Shown here piece by piece: positions 6,190-27,336 of a stretch of DNA of 27,336 bases. Within the stretch, counting starts at the first letter, position 1, and each line of letters starts with the position of its first letter. The DNA comes from a virus. The notes beneath the pieces are model-generated. The model was not told the origin of the DNA, did not search any database, and saw nothing but the letters and a program-made list of their open reading frames with translations. Made by a program: the position numbers and the translations under genes. The stretch is from positions 1 to 27,336 of IMG/VR virus record IMGVR_UViG_3300024518_001076; one strand, written 5' to 3'.

Positions 6190-8493
6190 TTATCCGAAAA
6201 ATCCAGTTAATGCGCCCATAACAGTATTCGATGCGCCCGCTGGAGCACCGAAAGCGCCAGTTATCCCGCCAGCCACTTGACCTATACCGCCCCGTATACC
6301 TGCTGCCCCACCAGTTAACCCGCCAGCCTGTGCCTGACCAATACCCACGTCACCTGATGCCAATTGTGAAGCATTTCCTGTGGACAAATTAGATAATATT
6401 TTTGCTAACTCCTGCTGTTGCGCGGCTGACATATTACCTGTGTTTTGCATGAAGTTGGCGATGTTCACGCCACCCTGGCCAAACACATCAGATAAGCCAG
6501 CGCCTTGTCGGTTACTTAAATCCGCTAGTGAGCGCGTTGATTGATTTATCTGATTAGCTAAATCTCTACCTGCTTGCGTTCTAGCTCCACCAAGAGCATT
6601 GCCAGCGTTTTGATACATATTAGCAGCGTTAGCGCCTGCGTTTTGCATCATGCCAGCACCTTGACCAGCTAATTGACCAGCAAAGTTGGCCTGATTTAGT
6701 CCAGTCTGAGCCTGTAATCCAGCACCTTGACCAGCTAAAGCACTTAATATGTTAGCTTGATTCGATCCACCTTGAGACTGCAAGCCTGCCTGTTGGTTAG
6801 CAATACTGCTTGCTAGGTTGGCCTGATTCTGACCTGCTCCTATTTGAGCTTGAGCGCCCGCACCACCTAAAGACGATAGAATGTTAGCTGAGTTTTGACC
6901 AGCTTGATTAGCGAGATTGGCTTGATTCTGACCAGTTGACAACATAGCGTTCGCCATGTTTTGCCCTCTATTTGCAGCTATACCCGCGCCCTGCTGTGCA
7001 GCATTAGCCGTTAACCCAGCGTTAAACTGACCGCCTTGCTGCTGATAACCAGCGCCTTGACCAAACAAGTTAGATAAATTATTGGCTTGATTACCCGCCA
7101 AGCTTGCTTGAGACTGAGCCGCCCCAAGTCTATTACTGGCGTTCTGCAAGCTTGCTTGTGTTTGCATCTGTGCGTTTTGAGCCGCCAAATTACCTTGCTG
7201 CTGTCCAGCTTGGGACAGGAATTGCCCTTGCTGCCCTGCTGCCTGTAATCCTTGCCCTGTGGATTGGAAAGCCCTATTAAATTGGTTGTCTAGGTCTTGA
7301 GCGGCTATACCAGCGCTTCTATCCTGTAATTCTCTTAGAATGTTTCCACTTACCACATTACCTGTTGCGCTTCCTTGGTTGGTAACGTTACGCATCATTT
7401 CATCTTGCAGGTATTTAGTTCCGGGGTTATTCATCATTGCGTTGTTAAACGCTTCTTGACCCTGTGCGCCTGATAAAGCTAACTGCTGTTGCTGTGACTG
7501 CAGCCCGCCGCCAGCGTAAGCGCCTACGCCCTGAGCCGCTTGATTGAATTGGTCTTGACCTATGTTTTGATCGACATTTGAAGCGCTACCGCTAAAGTCC
7601 CCACCTAAAGCGCCCATGCCTTGATTAATCATATCTTGTGAGGCAAACATGCCTTGACGCAATGAGTCTAATGCGCCTCTTGTCCCTTGGCTTGATTGTT
7701 GGCCTGCTAGGTTGTTGCCAGTATTTAATATATTCAAGCCCTGCTGTGAACCTTGATTTAACTGGTTTAACGCGCCAAATTGACCTTGATTTAGTGCGTT
7801 AGCGCCCTGCTGTGCGCCACCCATGATAGCGCCAACACCTTGATTTGCTGTGTTTTGTAGCGTGTTAAGTCCCTGACCTAACCCTTGATTCAGCTGGTTA
7901 GCTCCAAACTGCCCAGCATTACCCAGTGTATTAGACGCTCGATTAACACCTTGCTGAATGTAATTGCCAGCCCCTTGCTGTGCGTTCTGTAAGGTATTTA
8001 AAGCACCTTGTCCACCCATGCTAATTTGATTCTGCCCAAAGGCATTGGCATTTTGTAATGCGCCCAAACCTTGTTGCGTTGCGCCCTGTAAAGCATTCAA
8101 CCCACCAGTTAACCCGCCAGCATAAGCTTGTTCAGCACCCGCTAGGCCGTAGTTTTGACTTCCACCTGTTGGCGCTGGTTGGTATGGGGTTTGTTGCTGA
8201 CCCCCCGCCAGTAGTGACTGGACCTGTGATGTTGTTGCGCCTGACACGTCACTGACAAGCCTTTCGCCTTGATATTCCTGCGCTGGCGCTCCATAAAAAG
8301 AGCCGCCTCCGCGAACATTGTGCTTCACCATCCCATCAGCCTGCTGCTGGGTTATTGAATTTCCATTGGCATCTCGCAATCCCTGTGGCGCTGGCATTGC
8401 CTGTATGGCTTGCTGTGCGCCTGCGCTCATTTGGCTAGGCTGCCGCATCATGTTTGTTTGTAGGTTTCTTAATGCGCTAACTGGTGCTTTCAT
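6190..8493 (-). CDS. Repeat-rich ejection protein, P22 gp20-position
   Basis: A 767-residue protein of strongly biased composition (Gly, Ala, Gln, Asn), located where P22 encodes gp20. Residues about 131-261 are an array of roughly 11-residue units such as GALNTLQNAQQ and QGANALNQGQF. Residues 513-666 form a very regular array with 11- and then 22-residue units, each opening with QAN or a variant (QANLASSIANQ, QANILSALAGQ, QANFAGQLAGQ) and with no insertions in register. The C-terminus (about 723-767) is Gly-rich and hydrophobic. Eleven-residue periodicity is the hallmark of extended amphipathic helices that lie on membranes or form conduits. This fits a packaged protein that builds a trans-envelope channel. 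The start overlaps the upstream stop (ATGA). Function is inferred from position and repeat type. Confidence 0.65.
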   Translation of the reverse strand: MKAPVSALRNLQTNMMRQPSQMSAGAQQAIQAMPAPQGLRDANGNSITQQQADGMVKHNVRGGGSFYGAPAQEYQGERLVSDVSGATTSQVQSLLAGGQQQTPYQPAPTGGSQNYGLAGAEQAYAGGLTGGLNALQGATQQGLGALQNANAFGQNQISMGGQGALNTLQNAQQGAGNYIQQGVNRASNTLGNAGQFGANQLNQGLGQGLNTLQNTANQGVGAIMGGAQQGANALNQGQFGALNQLNQGSQQGLNILNTGNNLAGQQSSQGTRGALDSLRQGMFASQDMINQGMGALGGDFSGSASNVDQNIGQDQFNQAAQGVGAYAGGGLQSQQQQLALSGAQGQEAFNNAMMNNPGTKYLQDEMMRNVTNQGSATGNVVSGNILRELQDRSAGIAAQDLDNQFNRAFQSTGQGLQAAGQQGQFLSQAGQQQGNLAAQNAQMQTQASLQNASNRLGAAQSQASLAGNQANNLSNLFGQGAGYQQQGGQFNAGLTANAAQQGAGIAANRGQNMANAMLSTGQNQANLANQAGQNSANILSSLGGAGAQAQIGAGQNQANLASSIANQQAGLQSQGGSNQANILSALAGQGAGLQAQTGLNQANFAGQLAGQGAGMMQNAGANAANMYQNAGNALGGARTQAGRDLANQINQSTRSLADLSNRQGAGLSDVFGQGGVNIANFMQNTGNMSAAQQQELAKILSNLSTGNASQLASGDVGIGQAQAGGLTGGAAGIRGGIGQVAGGITGAFGAPAGASNTVMGALTGFFG

Positions 8494-24356: not shown

Positions 24357-24608
24357 TTACAATCTATCTATAAGGCATTGATTGCTCAATTCAACCGTTT
24401 TCATCTTAGTGTTTTGGGCTTTACTTCTTGCTGTTCCTTTGCTGATAAATTTGTATGTTTCGCCAGTTCTGCATAACTTGAACCTCTCGCCTTTTGTTAA
24501 ACTTCCTAGATAATAATGGTCACCTGTTGCGCCCTTTAAGCCTATGTCGTCAATTCTTGATTCATCACTTGGCCAGTCTTTAGTTTGTGGGTATTTAGAT
24601 GTCTGCAT
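24357..24608 (-). CDS. Small basic hypothetical protein
   Basis: An 83-residue basic protein whose start overlaps the 3' end of the DUF3268 gene by 14 nt. It reads as an N-terminal loop followed by a compact strand-rich part (GDHYYLGSLTKGERFKLCRT, GETYKFISKG) and a polar tail. Its place in the nin-like cluster suggests a DNA-metabolism accessory, but there is no recognisable motif. Confidence 0.5.
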   Translation of the reverse strand: MQTSKYPQTKDWPSDESRIDDIGLKGATGDHYYLGSLTKGERFKLCRTGETYKFISKGTARSKAQNTKMKTVELSNQCLIDRL

Positions 24609-24987
24609 TGTCTTTTATGTCCAGTATTATTCGGTAAACGTTACGGGCTTCTTCAATTGTTCGTATATTTGCTGTGTGATATTTCCACCCGATTTTATCA
24701 GTAATCATCTGGTATATTTTGGTTCTGCTTGTTTTGCTTCCACTCCATAGCGGATCAAGCAATGCGTGAATGTGCTTTCTAGCGTTTTTAATTTCTGGTG
24801 TTGCTATACACCCCAAAGGCTTTGTTCTGTCAGATGTTTTATGATGGCATCCGACAAAGTTACCGCAATCGTCACATTTCCAAAAAGGCAAATCATTAAG
24901 GTCTTTTCTATGTGGGTATATTTCAGCGCCATTTGTTAGCCTAGCCTCTACCCTTTCTTTGTCGCAACCTAAACATCTAATTAGCAT
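24595..24987 (-). CDS. DUF3268 zinc-finger protein
   Basis: A 130-residue protein matching the zinc-finger-containing DUF3268 family. It has two cysteine pairs (C5-x2-C8 and C38-x2-C41), then NFVGCHHKTSDRTKPLG with Cys47/His48, and TPEIKNARKHIHALLDPLW. The pattern YVGCH...PLG...RKxxHxxxDPLW is the family's signature. Its role is not known to me. It is followed by a helical C-terminus. It lies in a cluster with RusA-, NinB- and HNH-like genes, so a DNA-binding accessory in recombination or replication is likely. Confidence 0.82.
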   Translation of the reverse strand: MLIRCLGCDKERVEARLTNGAEIYPHRKDLNDLPFWKCDDCGNFVGCHHKTSDRTKPLGCIATPEIKNARKHIHALLDPLWSGSKTSRTKIYQMITDKIGWKYHTANIRTIEEARNVYRIILDIKDNADI

Positions 24988-24989
24988 TA

Positions 24990-25322
24990 CTAAACCTCTA
25001 TTGGCTCGATGGCGAATTTAATATACTCCTCGCCTTTTTTGACATCGTTATTAACCGCTACCATCATCAGCTTCACTTTGTTGTCGTTAAAGTCGTATTT
25101 CTTTTGCAGGCAATCTAAGAAAGGCTTTATACCATTATCAATATCGCTTAACTTGCTGCTATGCCCGAACTCAAGACGCAAACAAAGTAAGCCTTCTGGG
25201 ATTGTAATCTTAGGTAATATACGCAACACATCACGCTCAAATCTTTTGTACAATGGCGTTTTAAATCTCTTGCCCTGCCATGCATCATTTACAGATAGCG
25301 GTTTAATATCTACCTTATCCAT
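24990..25322 (-). CDS. RusA-like Holliday junction resolvase
   Basis: A 110-residue protein matching the RusA family in length and motif. SDIDNGIKPFLDCLQKKYDF (residues 59-78) contains the D-x-DN motif (D60, D62), and a further Asp lies at D80, about 20 residues on, corresponding to the RusA acidic triad (D70, D72, D91 in E. coli). RusA dimers cut four-way junctions, here to debranch concatemers before packaging. The opening VDIKPLSVNDAWQGKRFKT is also RusA-like. Its start is 1 nt after the upstream stop. Confidence 0.85.
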   Translation of the reverse strand: MDKVDIKPLSVNDAWQGKRFKTPLYKRFERDVLRILPKITIPEGLLCLRLEFGHSSKLSDIDNGIKPFLDCLQKKYDFNDNKVKLMMVAVNNDVKKGEEYIKFAIEPIEV

Positions 25323-25323
25323 A

Positions 25324-25722
25324 TTATCCCCTAACTATTGCGTCGATTATGTCTTGGCTGAATGGTATTTCATAGCCGTCTGACTTCATGTTATCTATCA
25401 TGTTTTGAAACAAAATTTCGTCACGGTCAAACCTATCTCTAAATGCTGCAGGCCTTAGAGTTTTATTAAATTCATGATCAGACATAACATTATGAAGCTC
25501 GTAGGGGATTGGCAGGATAGCCAGCTCGCCTACTGGCTTTGATATAAGTCCGACTTTGCGCTTTGCTCTTGCACCTAAGAAATGATCAAGCTCGAATTTT
25601 GATACGCTATCGAGACAATTACCAAACAAGTCATACGTCCAGCTTGTTTCCCTCGCAAAATCTGCCACTATCCCGCGCCATTTTAATTCTAATGCTGTTG
25701 GGTTCTTTCCTTTGCTAATCAT
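25324..25722 (-). CDS. HNH-like protein in NinG position
   Basis: A 132-residue protein starting at ATG 25722, 11 nt after the NinB-like stop with a GGGG ribosome-binding site; the longer reading from TTG 25758 would overlap ninB and has no better site. FELDHFLGARAKRKVGLISK (43-62) followed by LAILPIPYELHNVMSD resembles the beta-beta-alpha core of an HNH nuclease (D-H pair, then a later H-N). The zinc-binding cysteines of NinG are absent. Its position between NinB- and RusA-like genes is where lambdoid phages carry NinG/Rap or related nucleases. Nuclease function is inference from a limited motif. Confidence 0.5.
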   Translation of the reverse strand: MISKGKNPTALELKWRGIVADFARETSWTYDLFGNCLDSVSKFELDHFLGARAKRKVGLISKPVGELAILPIPYELHNVMSDHEFNKTLRPAAFRDRFDRDEILFQNMIDNMKSDGYEIPFSQDIIDAIVRG

Positions 25723-25733
25723 ACCTATACCCC

Positions 25734-26168
25734 TTATTGCTCTGGACTGGTTAAACAAAAACCTTGCCCTGTGTAGTTAACATAAATAGCGTCCAAGTAT
25801 TTCGACTTTTGCTTTGTCGTCATAATCCTGGTTACTGGAAAATCTAAAGGCTCCATCATCATCTGCAATTTAGCCTCATAAGTTAGCGGCTTTATAATTC
25901 TGTCATAAGCCTCTGCCCAATCGTCATGCTCCTTGGCTATCGCAACGCCGAAATGCAGCTTGCAATACCCTCTATATTCTTCTGCTGTCATGTCTCCCTG
26001 TTCTGCCAGTTCAAACATCCATTTGCGCTGTAATTTGTTTTGCTCGATAGACCTAGGTGCGCCTTTTGTTATTGATACAGTGAAAGGGCAATCAGTGCTT
26101 TCTATTCGCTTTATTATCTGCGCCCTGTCTGCATCGTTTCTTATTGCGCGCTTATCCGTCATAACCAT
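25734..26168 (-). CDS. NinB/Orf-like recombination mediator
   Basis: A 144-residue protein related to NinB (lambda Orf), which loads recombinases on single-strand-binding-protein-coated DNA. The signature is FTVSITKGAPRSIEQNKLQR (29-48), equivalent to the family's V-x-I...RSLDQNRKLW, followed by an extended helix and PLDFPVTRIMTTKQKSKYLD (108-127). Length agrees with NinB (about 146). It lies in a nin-like cluster with RusA- and HNH-like genes. Two start ATGs (26168 and 26162) are close together within the preceding gene's 3' end. Confidence 0.72.
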   Translation of the reverse strand: MVMTDKRAIRNDADRAQIIKRIESTDCPFTVSITKGAPRSIEQNKLQRKWMFELAEQGDMTAEEYRGYCKLHFGVAIAKEHDDWAEAYDRIIKPLTYEAKLQMMMEPLDFPVTRIMTTKQKSKYLDAIYVNYTGQGFCLTSPEQ

Positions 26169-26400
26169 AATTCCTAGCTATCTTAGCTAAGTCACCCATG
26201 CATTCTGCCTCTGCAAATTCTTCTATTAAGTCTTTACGGCTTAACTCAAACTCTTGAGTTGCCTTATCTACACCTCTTTTCTCACCCGACACCATTAACT
26301 TATGAAGCGTGCAGTTAGCTTTCTCAAGCTCTGCAATGCGTTTATTAGCTGCATCTAGCTGCATTTGCAAACTATGTACACATGGTGTTATTTTAATCAT
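26152..26400 (-). CDS. Coiled-coil hypothetical protein
   Basis: An 82-residue helical protein. Residues 8-40 (SLQMQLDAANKRIAELEKAN, CTLHKLMVSGEKRG) form a coiled coil, and the C-terminus ends EFAEAECMGDLAKIARNYG. Such Ea22- or DUF-type early phage proteins with one coiled coil are common but of unknown role. The start uses the repeated GGAGCAAGGCGAATG element and overlaps the upstream stop (ATGA); the 3' end overlaps ninB. Confidence 0.5.
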   Translation of the reverse strand: MIKITPCVHSLQMQLDAANKRIAELEKANCTLHKLMVSGEKRGVDKATQEFELSRKDLIEEFAEAECMGDLAKIARNYGYDG

Positions 26401-26642
26401 TCGCCTTGCTCCGGTAATTCCTCGTAACGTTCAACCCAATATTCAGCATCAGCAGACCTAGCATCAGCAGCAGCATTAGCAGCATAAGCAGAATTAGCAG
26501 TAGCAGTAGCACTAGCAGCATAAGAAGCAATAGTAGCAGCATAAGCAGAATTAGCAGCATCACGATTATCGTCTAATTCTTCTTGTGTGACTGAATCAGG
26601 GTCAGCTAGCCATTTCTTTACTAACTCAATGTGTTTGTTCAT
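26397..26642 (-). CDS. Alanine-repeat protein, tandem paralogue 1
   Basis: An 81-residue protein with a fixed N-terminus (MNKHIELVKKWLADPDSVTQ, EELDDN), an expandable Ala/Tyr/Ser/Thr tract (residues 28-63, units such as SAYAA and NAA), and a fixed C-terminus ending RYEELPEQGE. Related proteins with variable alanine tracts occur in many phages; no function is established that I can cite. The DNA of the tract is a GCA/AGC/TGC-rich low-complexity repeat likely to change length by slippage. It lies head-to-tail with its paralogue at 26639-26830. Confidence 0.65.
   Translation of the reverse strand: MNKHIELVKKWLADPDSVTQEELDDNRDAANSAYAATIASYAASATATANSAYAANAAADARSADAEYWVERYEELPEQGE
26398..26412 (-). 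repeat. Repeated start module GGAGCAAGGCGAATG (copy 1)
   Basis: Fifteen bases combining a ribosome-binding site (GGAG), the codons for the upstream gene's final QGE and the ATGA start/stop overlap of the next gene. Copies 2 and 3 are at 26640-26654 and 27111-27125. Confidence 0.8.
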
Positions 26643-26830
26643 TCGCCTTGCTCCGGTAATTCCTCATAAAGTTTAACCCAATATTCAGCATCAGCAGACC
26701 TAGCATCAGCAGCAGCATTAGCAGCATAAACAGCACTAGCAGCATAAGCAGCATTAGCCCTTAACTCTTCTTGTGTAACTGTCGTAGAGTCAGCTAACCA
26801 TTTTTTAACTAATTCAATGTGTTTATTCAT
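26639..26830 (-). CDS. Alanine-repeat protein, tandem paralogue 2
   Basis: A 63-residue paralogue of the downstream gene, with the same N-terminus (MNKHIELVKKWLAD) and C-terminus (RSADAEYWVKLYEELPEQGE) but a shorter Ala/Tyr tract (residues about 26-44). I prefer ATG 26830, because it matches the paralogue's first residue and has AAGG 9 nt upstream, over ATG 26836, which adds MK. Its tract differs from the paralogue's by loss of about 16-18 residues, while flanks are nearly identical. This implies a recent duplication followed by tract length change. Confidence 0.65.
   Translation of the reverse strand: MNKHIELVKKWLADSTTVTQEELRANAAYAASAVYAANAAADARSADAEYWVKLYEELPEQGE
26640..26654 (-). repeat. 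Repeated start module GGAGCAAGGCGAATG (copy 2)
   Basis: Identical to copy 1; it forms the stop of paralogue 2 and the start of paralogue 1. Confidence 0.8.
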
Positions 26831-27113
26831 TTTCATCTACCTTTGCTGATATGTGCTTCCATTTTTTAAGCCACTCATAAAAGTCGTCTACACTTCCAGA
26901 GTTGGTTTTATAAAAAGCGTAATTGAATTGATTTAGGTTGATAGGTACATTTAGCTCTTTCTTAAGCTCTGCAATGCGTTCATCTCTAAAAGCCAACTCG
27001 GCTGCTATATCAGATTTACGGTGCAGCTTTTCACCAGTCATTGCATGAACATGGTCTTCGTATGTATCCAGTTCCACTATATCTCTGTTGCCAACGTCAT
27101 ATAATCTAGTCAT
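26823..27113 (-). CDS. Hypothetical early protein
   Basis: A 96-residue soluble protein. The N-terminal third is strand-rich (TRLYDVGNRDIVELDTYEDH), the middle is a helix (KSDIAAELAFRDERIAELKK), and the C-terminus has FYEWLKKWKHISAKVDENE. The start lies on copy 3 of the repeated start module. It ends in a 4- to 14-nt overlap with the alanine-repeat gene. No family recognised. Confidence 0.5.
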   Translation of the reverse strand: MTRLYDVGNRDIVELDTYEDHVHAMTGEKLHRKSDIAAELAFRDERIAELKKELNVPINLNQFNYAFYKTNSGSVDDFYEWLKKWKHISAKVDENE

Positions 27114-27125
27114 TCGCCTTGCTCC
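27111..27125 (-). repeat. Repeated start module GGAGCAAGGCGAATG (copy 3)
   Basis: Identical to copies 1 and 2 but located after the stop of the helix-turn-helix gene at 27125-27334 and providing the start of the gene at 26823-27113. Confidence 0.8.
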
Positions 27126-27334
27126 TACGCTTGATTTTTACTATGACGATAACGCAAGCCTACTAAGCTTATTTCACGTCTATGTAGCATTGACGCTATT
27201 GCACCGGCGGGACGGTCAAAGTGCTTAGCTAGGTCTTTTAATCTATAACCAAGGTATAAAACCAAGTCGATTAACTCAACCATGCGCTTATCCCACCATT
27301 CTTTTTTTGTTTGTATGCTTGGATTTGGATTCAT
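27125..27334 (-). CDS. Small helix-turn-helix protein
   Basis: A 69-residue basic protein whose ATG (27334-27332) is only two bases from the right edge, so its upstream region is not visible. Residues about 13-52 (WWDKRMVELIDLVLYLGYRL, then KDLAKHFDRPAGAIASMLHR) form a helix-turn-helix of the GcrA/Myb-like or sigma-region-4 type (LGYRLKDLAKHFDRPAGAIA). It is probably a transcriptional regulator of early genes. A longer gene starting beyond the edge cannot be excluded. Confidence 0.55.
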   Translation of the reverse strand: MNPNPSIQTKKEWWDKRMVELIDLVLYLGYRLKDLAKHFDRPAGAIASMLHRREISLVGLRYRHSKNQA

Positions 27335-27336
27335 TT

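What the first reader, a model, noticed from the sequence alone, without database searches (positions are those of the whole stretch)
26398..27125. Three identical 15-bp translation-start modules
GGAGCAAGGCGAATG occurs at the start of three successive early genes (26400, 26642, 27113) that are otherwise unrelated except for the two paralogues. It carries the ribosome-binding site and the start codon, and in two copies the end of the preceding gene. Such a module could serve as a recombination joint for exchanging small genes without disturbing coupling, or as a common site for a translational repressor.
Basis: partly seen in the sequence, partly recalled or inferred. Interest (0 to 1): 0.5.

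Follow-up and report, generated by a model that had tools for sequence, protein, structure and literature searches.

The report
Repeated gene-joint sequence in uncultured phages
A 16-letter DNA sequence that ends one small gene and starts the next recurs at the borders of many unrelated small genes in a group of uncultured phages, and different phages carry different genes on either side of it, as if it were a common plug at which small genes are swapped.

Summary
GGAGCAAGGCGAATG occurs three times, exactly, on the minus strand, and all three copies run on to ATGA. Two copies end tandem paralogues, so duplication explains part of the count.

Relatives settle what it is. One relative (G015) has eight copies at up to one mismatch, all on one strand. 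In 35 stretches, most picked by eye, 59 of 67 sites both end an upstream reading frame (tail EQGE or near) and start ATGA. The loci I did not pick look far less regular. The same upstream gene plus joint is followed by different genes in different phages. The window and G015 share gene D at 97.8% up to the joint and differ after it. L195/L197 are an empty/occupied pair with the break inside the joint.

Alignment ends hit joints about 18 times more often than uniform chance. Against other gene borders the excess is significant only while repeat-rich families are counted.

Best reading: a recombination joint that preserves stop/RBS/start coupling. A translational-control role is not excluded. 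Closest known: start-associated sequences of cluster K mycobacteriophages, T4 PeSLs, lambdoid boundary sequences.

The parts
27111..27125 (-). Joint copy 3: its first base is the last base of the TAG stop of gene D; carries RBS and start codon of gene C
26640..26654 (-). Joint copy 2: encodes tail EQGE* of the 65-aa paralogue, RBS and ATG of the 81-aa paralogue (ATGA overlap)
26398..26412 (-). Joint copy 1: encodes tail EQGE* of the 81-aa paralogue, RBS and ATG of the 82-aa gene (ATGA overlap)
27125..27334 (-). Gene D, 69 aa, no PHROG hit at 0.001 or Pfam hit at 0.01; 97.8% DNA identity with G015 up to the joint. Its far border lies at the window's end and cannot be judged
26823..27113 (-). 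Gene C, 96 aa (phrog_34533, unknown function); in G015 an Ala-rich gene follows gene D instead
26639..26836 (-). Gene B, 65 aa, Ala-rich paralogue (start perhaps at 26830); its own start lacks the joint
26397..26642 (-). Gene A, 81 aa, Ala-rich paralogue; family MNKHIELVKKWL...
26152..26400 (-). 82-aa gene (weak phrog_1138, E 1.5e-4, unknown function)
25734..26168 (-). NinB/Orf homologous recombination mediator (phrog_7283, E 8.9e-26)
25324..25758 (-). 144-aa ORF of unknown function (start perhaps at 25722), used as a probe for relatives
24990..25322 (-). RusA-like Holliday junction resolvase (phrog_34, E 2.2e-5; phrog_11573 of unknown function, E 7.6e-37)

Best explanation
The module is a portable gene joint. 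One 16-bp sequence, often inside the longer CTAAAGGAGCAAGGCGAATGA, carries the last codons and stop of the upstream gene (KEQGE*), the Shine-Dalgarno sequence and the overlapping start of the downstream gene. Many small genes in this phage group are flanked by the same joint, so recombination between any two copies can add, drop or swap a gene and still leaves a working stop/RBS/start junction. Shown: the joint is shared by unrelated neighbours, neighbours are reshuffled at it, and in specific pairs the match breaks inside it or within a few bases. Inferred: that short homology at the joint, probably used by phage annealing or Orf-type functions, produces the exchanges.
For: Copies: 8 in G015 and 6 in G008, one strand only in each of 40 records, reversed control pattern 0 in all 40. 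Anatomy: 67 sites (at most 1 mismatch) in 35 stretches of 34 contigs, most picked by eye: 67 read ATGA, 64 start an ORF of 35 codons or more, 59 end an upstream frame of 30 codons or more at that TGA. Proteins beside 64 sites fall into 66 families, one of them chained by single linkage. Same upstream gene, different followers: gene D to gene C (window) or to an Ala-rich gene (G015); 'aatgccatttaaacacccg...' to three different genes in L047, L062, L092. Window/G015: 97.8% over 230 bp, ending 3 bp past the 16-mer; other matches mostly 72-83%, apart from 47 and 52 bp at 95.7% and 88.5%. L195/L197: flanking blocks 96.2% and 95.7% identical; L197 holds an extra gene of 126-127 codons between two joint variants, L195 is the empty site, and the two alignments overlap by 9 bp in L195. 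31 of 191 alignment ends near joints lie within 5 bp of one (random mean 1.75, largest 7 of 1000); without repeat families 21 of 221 against 1.16 expected. Relatives sought through another gene: 4 of 4 loci carry it, but two are near-identical and two were already known through the joint, so L203 is the one independent new case, with three sites. TAAAGGAGCAAGGCGAATGA: 20 stretches (19 contigs) of IMG/VR; a spacer permutation and a second altered spacer 0 each. Recombination genes: NinB/Orf and RusA-like in the window, exonuclease and SSB in G015, RecE-like and Sak4-like proteins in L163.
Against: Gene borders in general attract breaks. Without the repeat-rich families, joint borders are broken in 10 of 27 cases and other borders in 55 of 208 (p = 0.26), and one-sided homology is 9 of 12 pairs against 96 of 187 (p = 0.14). 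The carriers were picked by eye: among the 119 loci of the capped scan, the 37 picked have 48 of 48 exact sites followed by A, the 82 not picked 36 of 82, with 25 of 82 at a full gene junction; many single hits are therefore probably chance. The probe used for independent relatives was built partly from joint carriers. In L195 and L197 the gene after the joint is a short remnant (24 codons in L195). 15-16 bp is short for known recombination systems (recalled). Of four bacterial-genome hits of the 19-mer, two lie at gene junctions, so it can arise independently. All carriers are metagenomic fragments.
Confidence: 0.67

Rival explanations
1. A translational control site: the fixed sequence is the target of a phage or host protein or small RNA that governs a set of small early genes and is conserved by selection; gene exchange at it is ordinary border recombination.
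For: One strand only, at start codons, with conservation beyond the Shine-Dalgarno bases, as in the start-associated sequences of cluster K phages, whose role is presumed translational but unproven (passages of PMC3203893, and PMC11373665). With repeat families removed, joints are not significantly favoured over other borders as breakpoints.
Against: Spacer alleles differ (GCGA, AGTG, AGTA; C or A at position 5) at otherwise similar joints, which a strict binding site would not easily allow. No opposite-strand copy at up to one mismatch in 40 records. Predicted openness of the Shine-Dalgarno bases is slightly higher, not lower, than at other sites (mean 0.58, n = 58, against 0.50, n = 138). 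The CTAAA before the ribosome-binding site is also shared by many unrelated upstream genes.
Confidence: 0.24
2. No special element: two copies come from a tandem duplication and the third is a chance match of a good ribosome-binding site with an ATGA overlap.
For: Copies 1 and 2 sit at the ends of tandem paralogues. Exact 19-mer hits in four bacterial genomes, two at gene junctions, and the many irregular single hits in viral contigs show that chance or convergence yields it.
Against: Up to 8 copies in one relative at borders of unrelated genes, three sites in L203, found through another gene, and no hits for two altered spacers. In a scan of 164 loci for starts sharing a 12-mer, 12 loci had three or more such starts and 11 of them had this joint, from 6 distinct contigs; most of these loci had been fetched through the joint.
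Confidence: 0.05

Closest known systems
Start-associated sequences (SAS) of cluster K mycobacteriophages
   Same: Short non-palindromic repeat, many copies per genome, with the Shine-Dalgarno core next to start codons of unrelated genes in the non-structural half, nearly all in one orientation; at some sites it also holds the upstream stop codon (passages of PMC3203893)
   Different: Different sequence (13-bp GGGATAGGAGCCC) that does not include the start codon; mostly genes with more than 50 bp of intergenic space, whereas here genes overlap by ATGA and the repeat encodes the upstream tail. The passages I saw propose a role in translation initiation, not exchange
Short conserved boundary sequences of lambdoid phages (HK620 and nin-region work, recalled)
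   Same: Short homologies at gene borders proposed to mediate mosaic exchange; [quoted passage not shown]
   Different: As recalled, those are particular to single borders; here one sequence is reused at many borders, several times per genome. Original papers not read
PeSL cassettes of T4-type phages (Arbiol 2010, Comeau 2014)
   Same: A repeated short element that mediates shuffling of genes (cited so in passages of PMC4503421)
   Different: PeSLs are early promoter plus stem-loop units; here the repeat is a stop/RBS/start unit in an overlap of genes. Original papers not held

Membership tests
Cluster K start-associated sequence | 13-bp consensus GGGATAGGAGCCC with at most 2 deviations | tested here: not met
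   0 matches in the window at up to 2 mismatches; consensus. Relatives were not searched for it
Cluster K start-associated sequence | Multiple copies next to start codons, one orientation | tested here: met
   64 of 67 sites in the picked set start an ORF of 35 codons or more; one strand in each of 40 records
Cluster K start-associated sequence | Mostly before genes more than 50 bp from their upstream neighbour | tested here: not met
   59 of 67 sites have an upstream frame ending at the TGA of ATGA
T4 PeSL | Early promoter and stem-loop in the repeat | tested here: not met
   In 26100-27336 the consensus scan found 0 promoter-like sites and one terminator-like site at 26191-26173, not at a joint; a phage-specific promoter would not be seen
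Recombination boundary sequence | Exchange breakpoints at the repeat, with different neighbours in relatives | tested here: met
Recombination boundary sequence | Breaks preferred over other gene borders | tested here: inconclusive
   19 of 42 against 50 of 302 (p = 1e-4); without repeat families 10 of 27 against 55 of 208 (p = 0.26)
Recombination boundary sequence | Recombination depends on the homology | not testable with these tools
   needs a cross of marked phages

The most novel reading that the evidence does not exclude
A standard, reusable gene connector kept by selection: phages with different replication genes draw small genes from a common pool in which the genes carry the same stop/RBS/start plug, and phage annealing proteins recombine at the plug, so operons grow and shrink gene by gene while staying translationally coupled.
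Probability: 0.38. Interest if true: 0.75.

Novelty: new variant of a known kind. Interest (0 to 1): 0.56.

Why it matters
How phage genomes become mosaics, by short homologies at gene borders or by illegitimate joining plus selection, is still argued (passages of PMC3029335 and PMC3945230). A phage group with one recognisable joint used many times makes that testable: breakpoints, cassette gain and loss, and the effect of altering the joint can be measured. It would also give a simple rule by which unrelated accessory genes stay translationally coupled after exchange.

Tried and rejected
Tandem duplication as the whole explanation: it accounts for copies 1 and 2 at most. Chance: unlikely for the group, given copy number in relatives and two altered-spacer patterns with 0 hits (the second is not an exact permutation, having one A in place of a G). 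But a check of the whole capped hit list shows that most loci I did not pick are irregular: of their 82 sites, 36 read ATGA, 48 start an ORF of 35 codons or more and 25 are full junctions; over all 119 loci the figures are 84, 94 and 69 of 130.

I looked only at the ORFs on either side, not further around, and assign no host. The large terminase is, in the 15 rows listed of 1337 records, 42.6-44.8% identical to that of phages of Escherichia, Pseudomonas, Salmonella, Klebsiella and Aeromonas. The 81-aa gene had no match among phage records.

Joint against flank conservation in orthologous junctions: only 7 junction pairs, 82 of 84 against 663 of 700 positions, uninformative and biased by selection. 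Pair counts: at joints 6 two-sided and 81 one-sided homologies, at other borders 91 and 100, mixed pairs 0 and 43; not significant without repeat families. Masking of the ribosome-binding site by structure: no sign. Named phages fetched as comparators (Vibrio 1.029.O, Pseudoalteromonas XCL1123, Aeromonas PhAER-1; stretches only) did not show this joint as a shared start (only the best cluster of each of the top 45 loci was printed).

Rows dropped: of the 40 records, two (G014, G024) were not fetched; nine loci (L162, L167, L169, L177, L184, L186, L187, L188, L191) were left out as near-identical to kept ones or without sites. L164 and L165, 98.5% identical over 2.3 kb, were both kept, and L179 and L180 are two parts of one contig, so the 35 stretches are not fully independent. 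One search used 24 of the stretches. On checking I lowered the main confidence from 0.70 to 0.67 and the novel case from 0.40 to 0.38 because.

Full report
Observation. The 15-mer is present three times, exactly, on the minus strand, and the match runs on to ATGA; apart from alanine-repeat DNA it supplies the only 15-mers found three times in the window. The window is a 27.3-kb virus record with a large terminase, a NinB/Orf recombination mediator and a RusA-like resolvase. The order on the minus strand is gene D, joint, gene C, gene B, joint, gene A, joint, 82-aa gene, NinB, 144-aa ORF, RusA-like gene. Genes B and A are tandem Ala-rich paralogues that both end in EELPEQGE*, so one copy could have come with the duplication. 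Gene B itself starts without a joint.

Distribution. Many are single, irregular hits, but a connected group carries several copies. In 40 records picked by eye, 16 had two or more copies at up to one mismatch, always on one strand, with 8 in G015 and 6 in G008; the reversed control pattern was absent from all 40. The longer TAAAGGAGCAAGGCGAATGA hit 20 stretches of 19 contigs; one spacer permutation and one other altered spacer hit none. A second spacer allele, CCAAAGGAGCAAGAGTGATGA, hit 10 stretches, 6 of them in contigs that also carry the first form; these 6 are three near-identical pairs. A scan of 164 loci for start codons of non-paralogous ORFs preceded by a shared 12-mer gave 12 loci with three or more such starts; 11 have this joint (6 distinct contigs) and the twelfth, L103, a different repeat. 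Most of these loci had been fetched through the joint, so this is no unbiased sample.

Anatomy. Over 35 stretches of 34 contigs (the window, 30 of the picked records, L181, L182 and L203), 67 sites with at most one mismatch all read ATGA; 64 start an ORF of 35 codons or more; in 59 an upstream frame of at least 30 codons ends at the TGA, so unrelated proteins share the C-terminal tail EQGE or a near variant, often LKEQGE. The three sites without such a downstream ORF are L195:11135 (24 codons), L196:8747 and L199:8657. The regularity owes something to my choice: over all 119 loci, 84 of 130 exact sites read ATGA and 69 of 130 are full junctions; in the 82 loci not picked the figures are 36 and 25 of 82.

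Exchange. The same upstream gene with the joint is followed by different genes: gene D by gene C in the window and by an Ala-rich gene in G015; one gene ending LHTFTECKEQGE or a near variant by three different genes in L047, L062 and L092. Window and G015 share gene D at 97.8% over 230 bp, and the match ends 3 bp past the 16-mer; their other matches lie mostly at 72-83%, apart from two short ones (47 bp at 95.7%, 52 bp at 88.5%). The window ends just beyond gene D, so its other border is not seen. L203, found through the 144-aa ORF, is 96.5% identical to the window over 753 bp of that ORF and the RusA-like gene but has a different gene set just upstream, with three joints. That search returned four loci, all with joints; two are near-identical and two were already known through the joint, and the probe itself was built partly from joint carriers. 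In L183, L190, L195 and L197, which share long blocks at 89-99%, the same place between two shared genes holds different small genes. L197 has a gene of 126-127 codons between GGAGCAAGAGTGATG and GGAGCAAGGGGATGA; L195 has the two flanks meeting at one GGAGCAAGGCGAATGA. This is the clearest occupied/empty pair and places the break within the joint; which state is older is not known, and the gene after the joint is a short remnant in both.

Counts and their limits. In 24 stretches, 31 of 191 distinct alignment ends within 4 kb of a joint lie within 5 bp of one, against 1.75 by random placement (largest 7 of 1000). Borders with a joint carry a break in 19 of 42 cases, other borders in 50 of 302 (p = 1e-4), and other borders with an ATGA overlap in 9 of 52. 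Each alignment gives ends in two contigs, so these are not independent. The Ala-rich and QEI(I/L)DNAP families, several copies per phage, inflate the figures. With them removed, 21 of 221 ends lie at joints against 1.16 expected, but joint borders are no longer significantly ahead of other borders (10 of 27 against 55 of 208, p = 0.26), and one-sided homology is 9 of 12 pairs against 96 of 187 (p = 0.14). So exchange at the joint is shown by cases; that the joint causes it is an inference.

Carriers. G015 has a DnaB-like helicase, an exonuclease and SSB; L163 a RecE-like exonuclease, a Sak4-like annealing protein and a helicase; L190 a DNA polymerase and a primase-helicase 34-37% identical to those of Vibrio and other phages in the rows listed. 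The joint is thus found in phages with different replication genes, with the caution that all are fragments. No host was identified.

Mechanism. A joint that contains the end of one gene, the ribosome-binding site and the start of the next is neutral to exchange: any crossover between two copies gives a correct junction. Phage annealing and mediator proteins are plausible agents; Rad52-like phage recombinases act on short and diverged sequences (passages of PMC3945230), but 15-16 bp is shorter than usual (recalled). A second role as a common translational control site is possible and is what has been proposed for the start-associated sequences of cluster K phages, whose role remains unproven (passages seen).

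Known or new. It is not a cluster K start-associated sequence: that consensus has no match in the window at up to 2 mismatches, and here there is no intergenic space. It does not look like a PeSL: no promoter-like site was found in 26100-27336, and the one terminator-like site is not at a joint. It matches the older idea of short boundary sequences (passages of PMC3029335), in the special form of one sequence reused at many borders. My literature searches listed no paper that I recognised as describing it; they did not search for the sequence itself, and the library lacks most subscription journals.

Noticed in passing
L103 (IMGVR_UViG_3300046660_000282), sites at 8063, 9340, 10933 and 11527 counted on the reverse complement: Another start-linked repeat, GGAGCTAAGCAGATG three times and GGAACTAAGCAGATG once, before four ORFs of 64-112 aa with different starts; possibly an independent case of the same kind.
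   Followed up: no
window 26397-26836 and L161 (G015): Ala-rich genes with a fixed N-terminus MNKHIELVKKWL, a variable A/Y/D/N-rich middle and a fixed tail; G015 has three genes starting MNKHIELVKKWL at joints, and in L164 the same N-terminus appears to lead into a different C-terminus.
   Followed up: partly
window 25734-26168 and L161:1441-1854 (minus): Window and G015 carry different NinB/Orf-type genes just before the 144-aa ORF (phrog_7283, E 8.9e-26, against a weak phrog_72 match, E 7e-4), perhaps a replacement by an analogue.
   Followed up: no
window 24595-24987 (minus): 130-aa protein with a DUF3268 zinc-finger domain (Pfam E 1.1e-15) beside the RusA-like gene.
   Followed up: no
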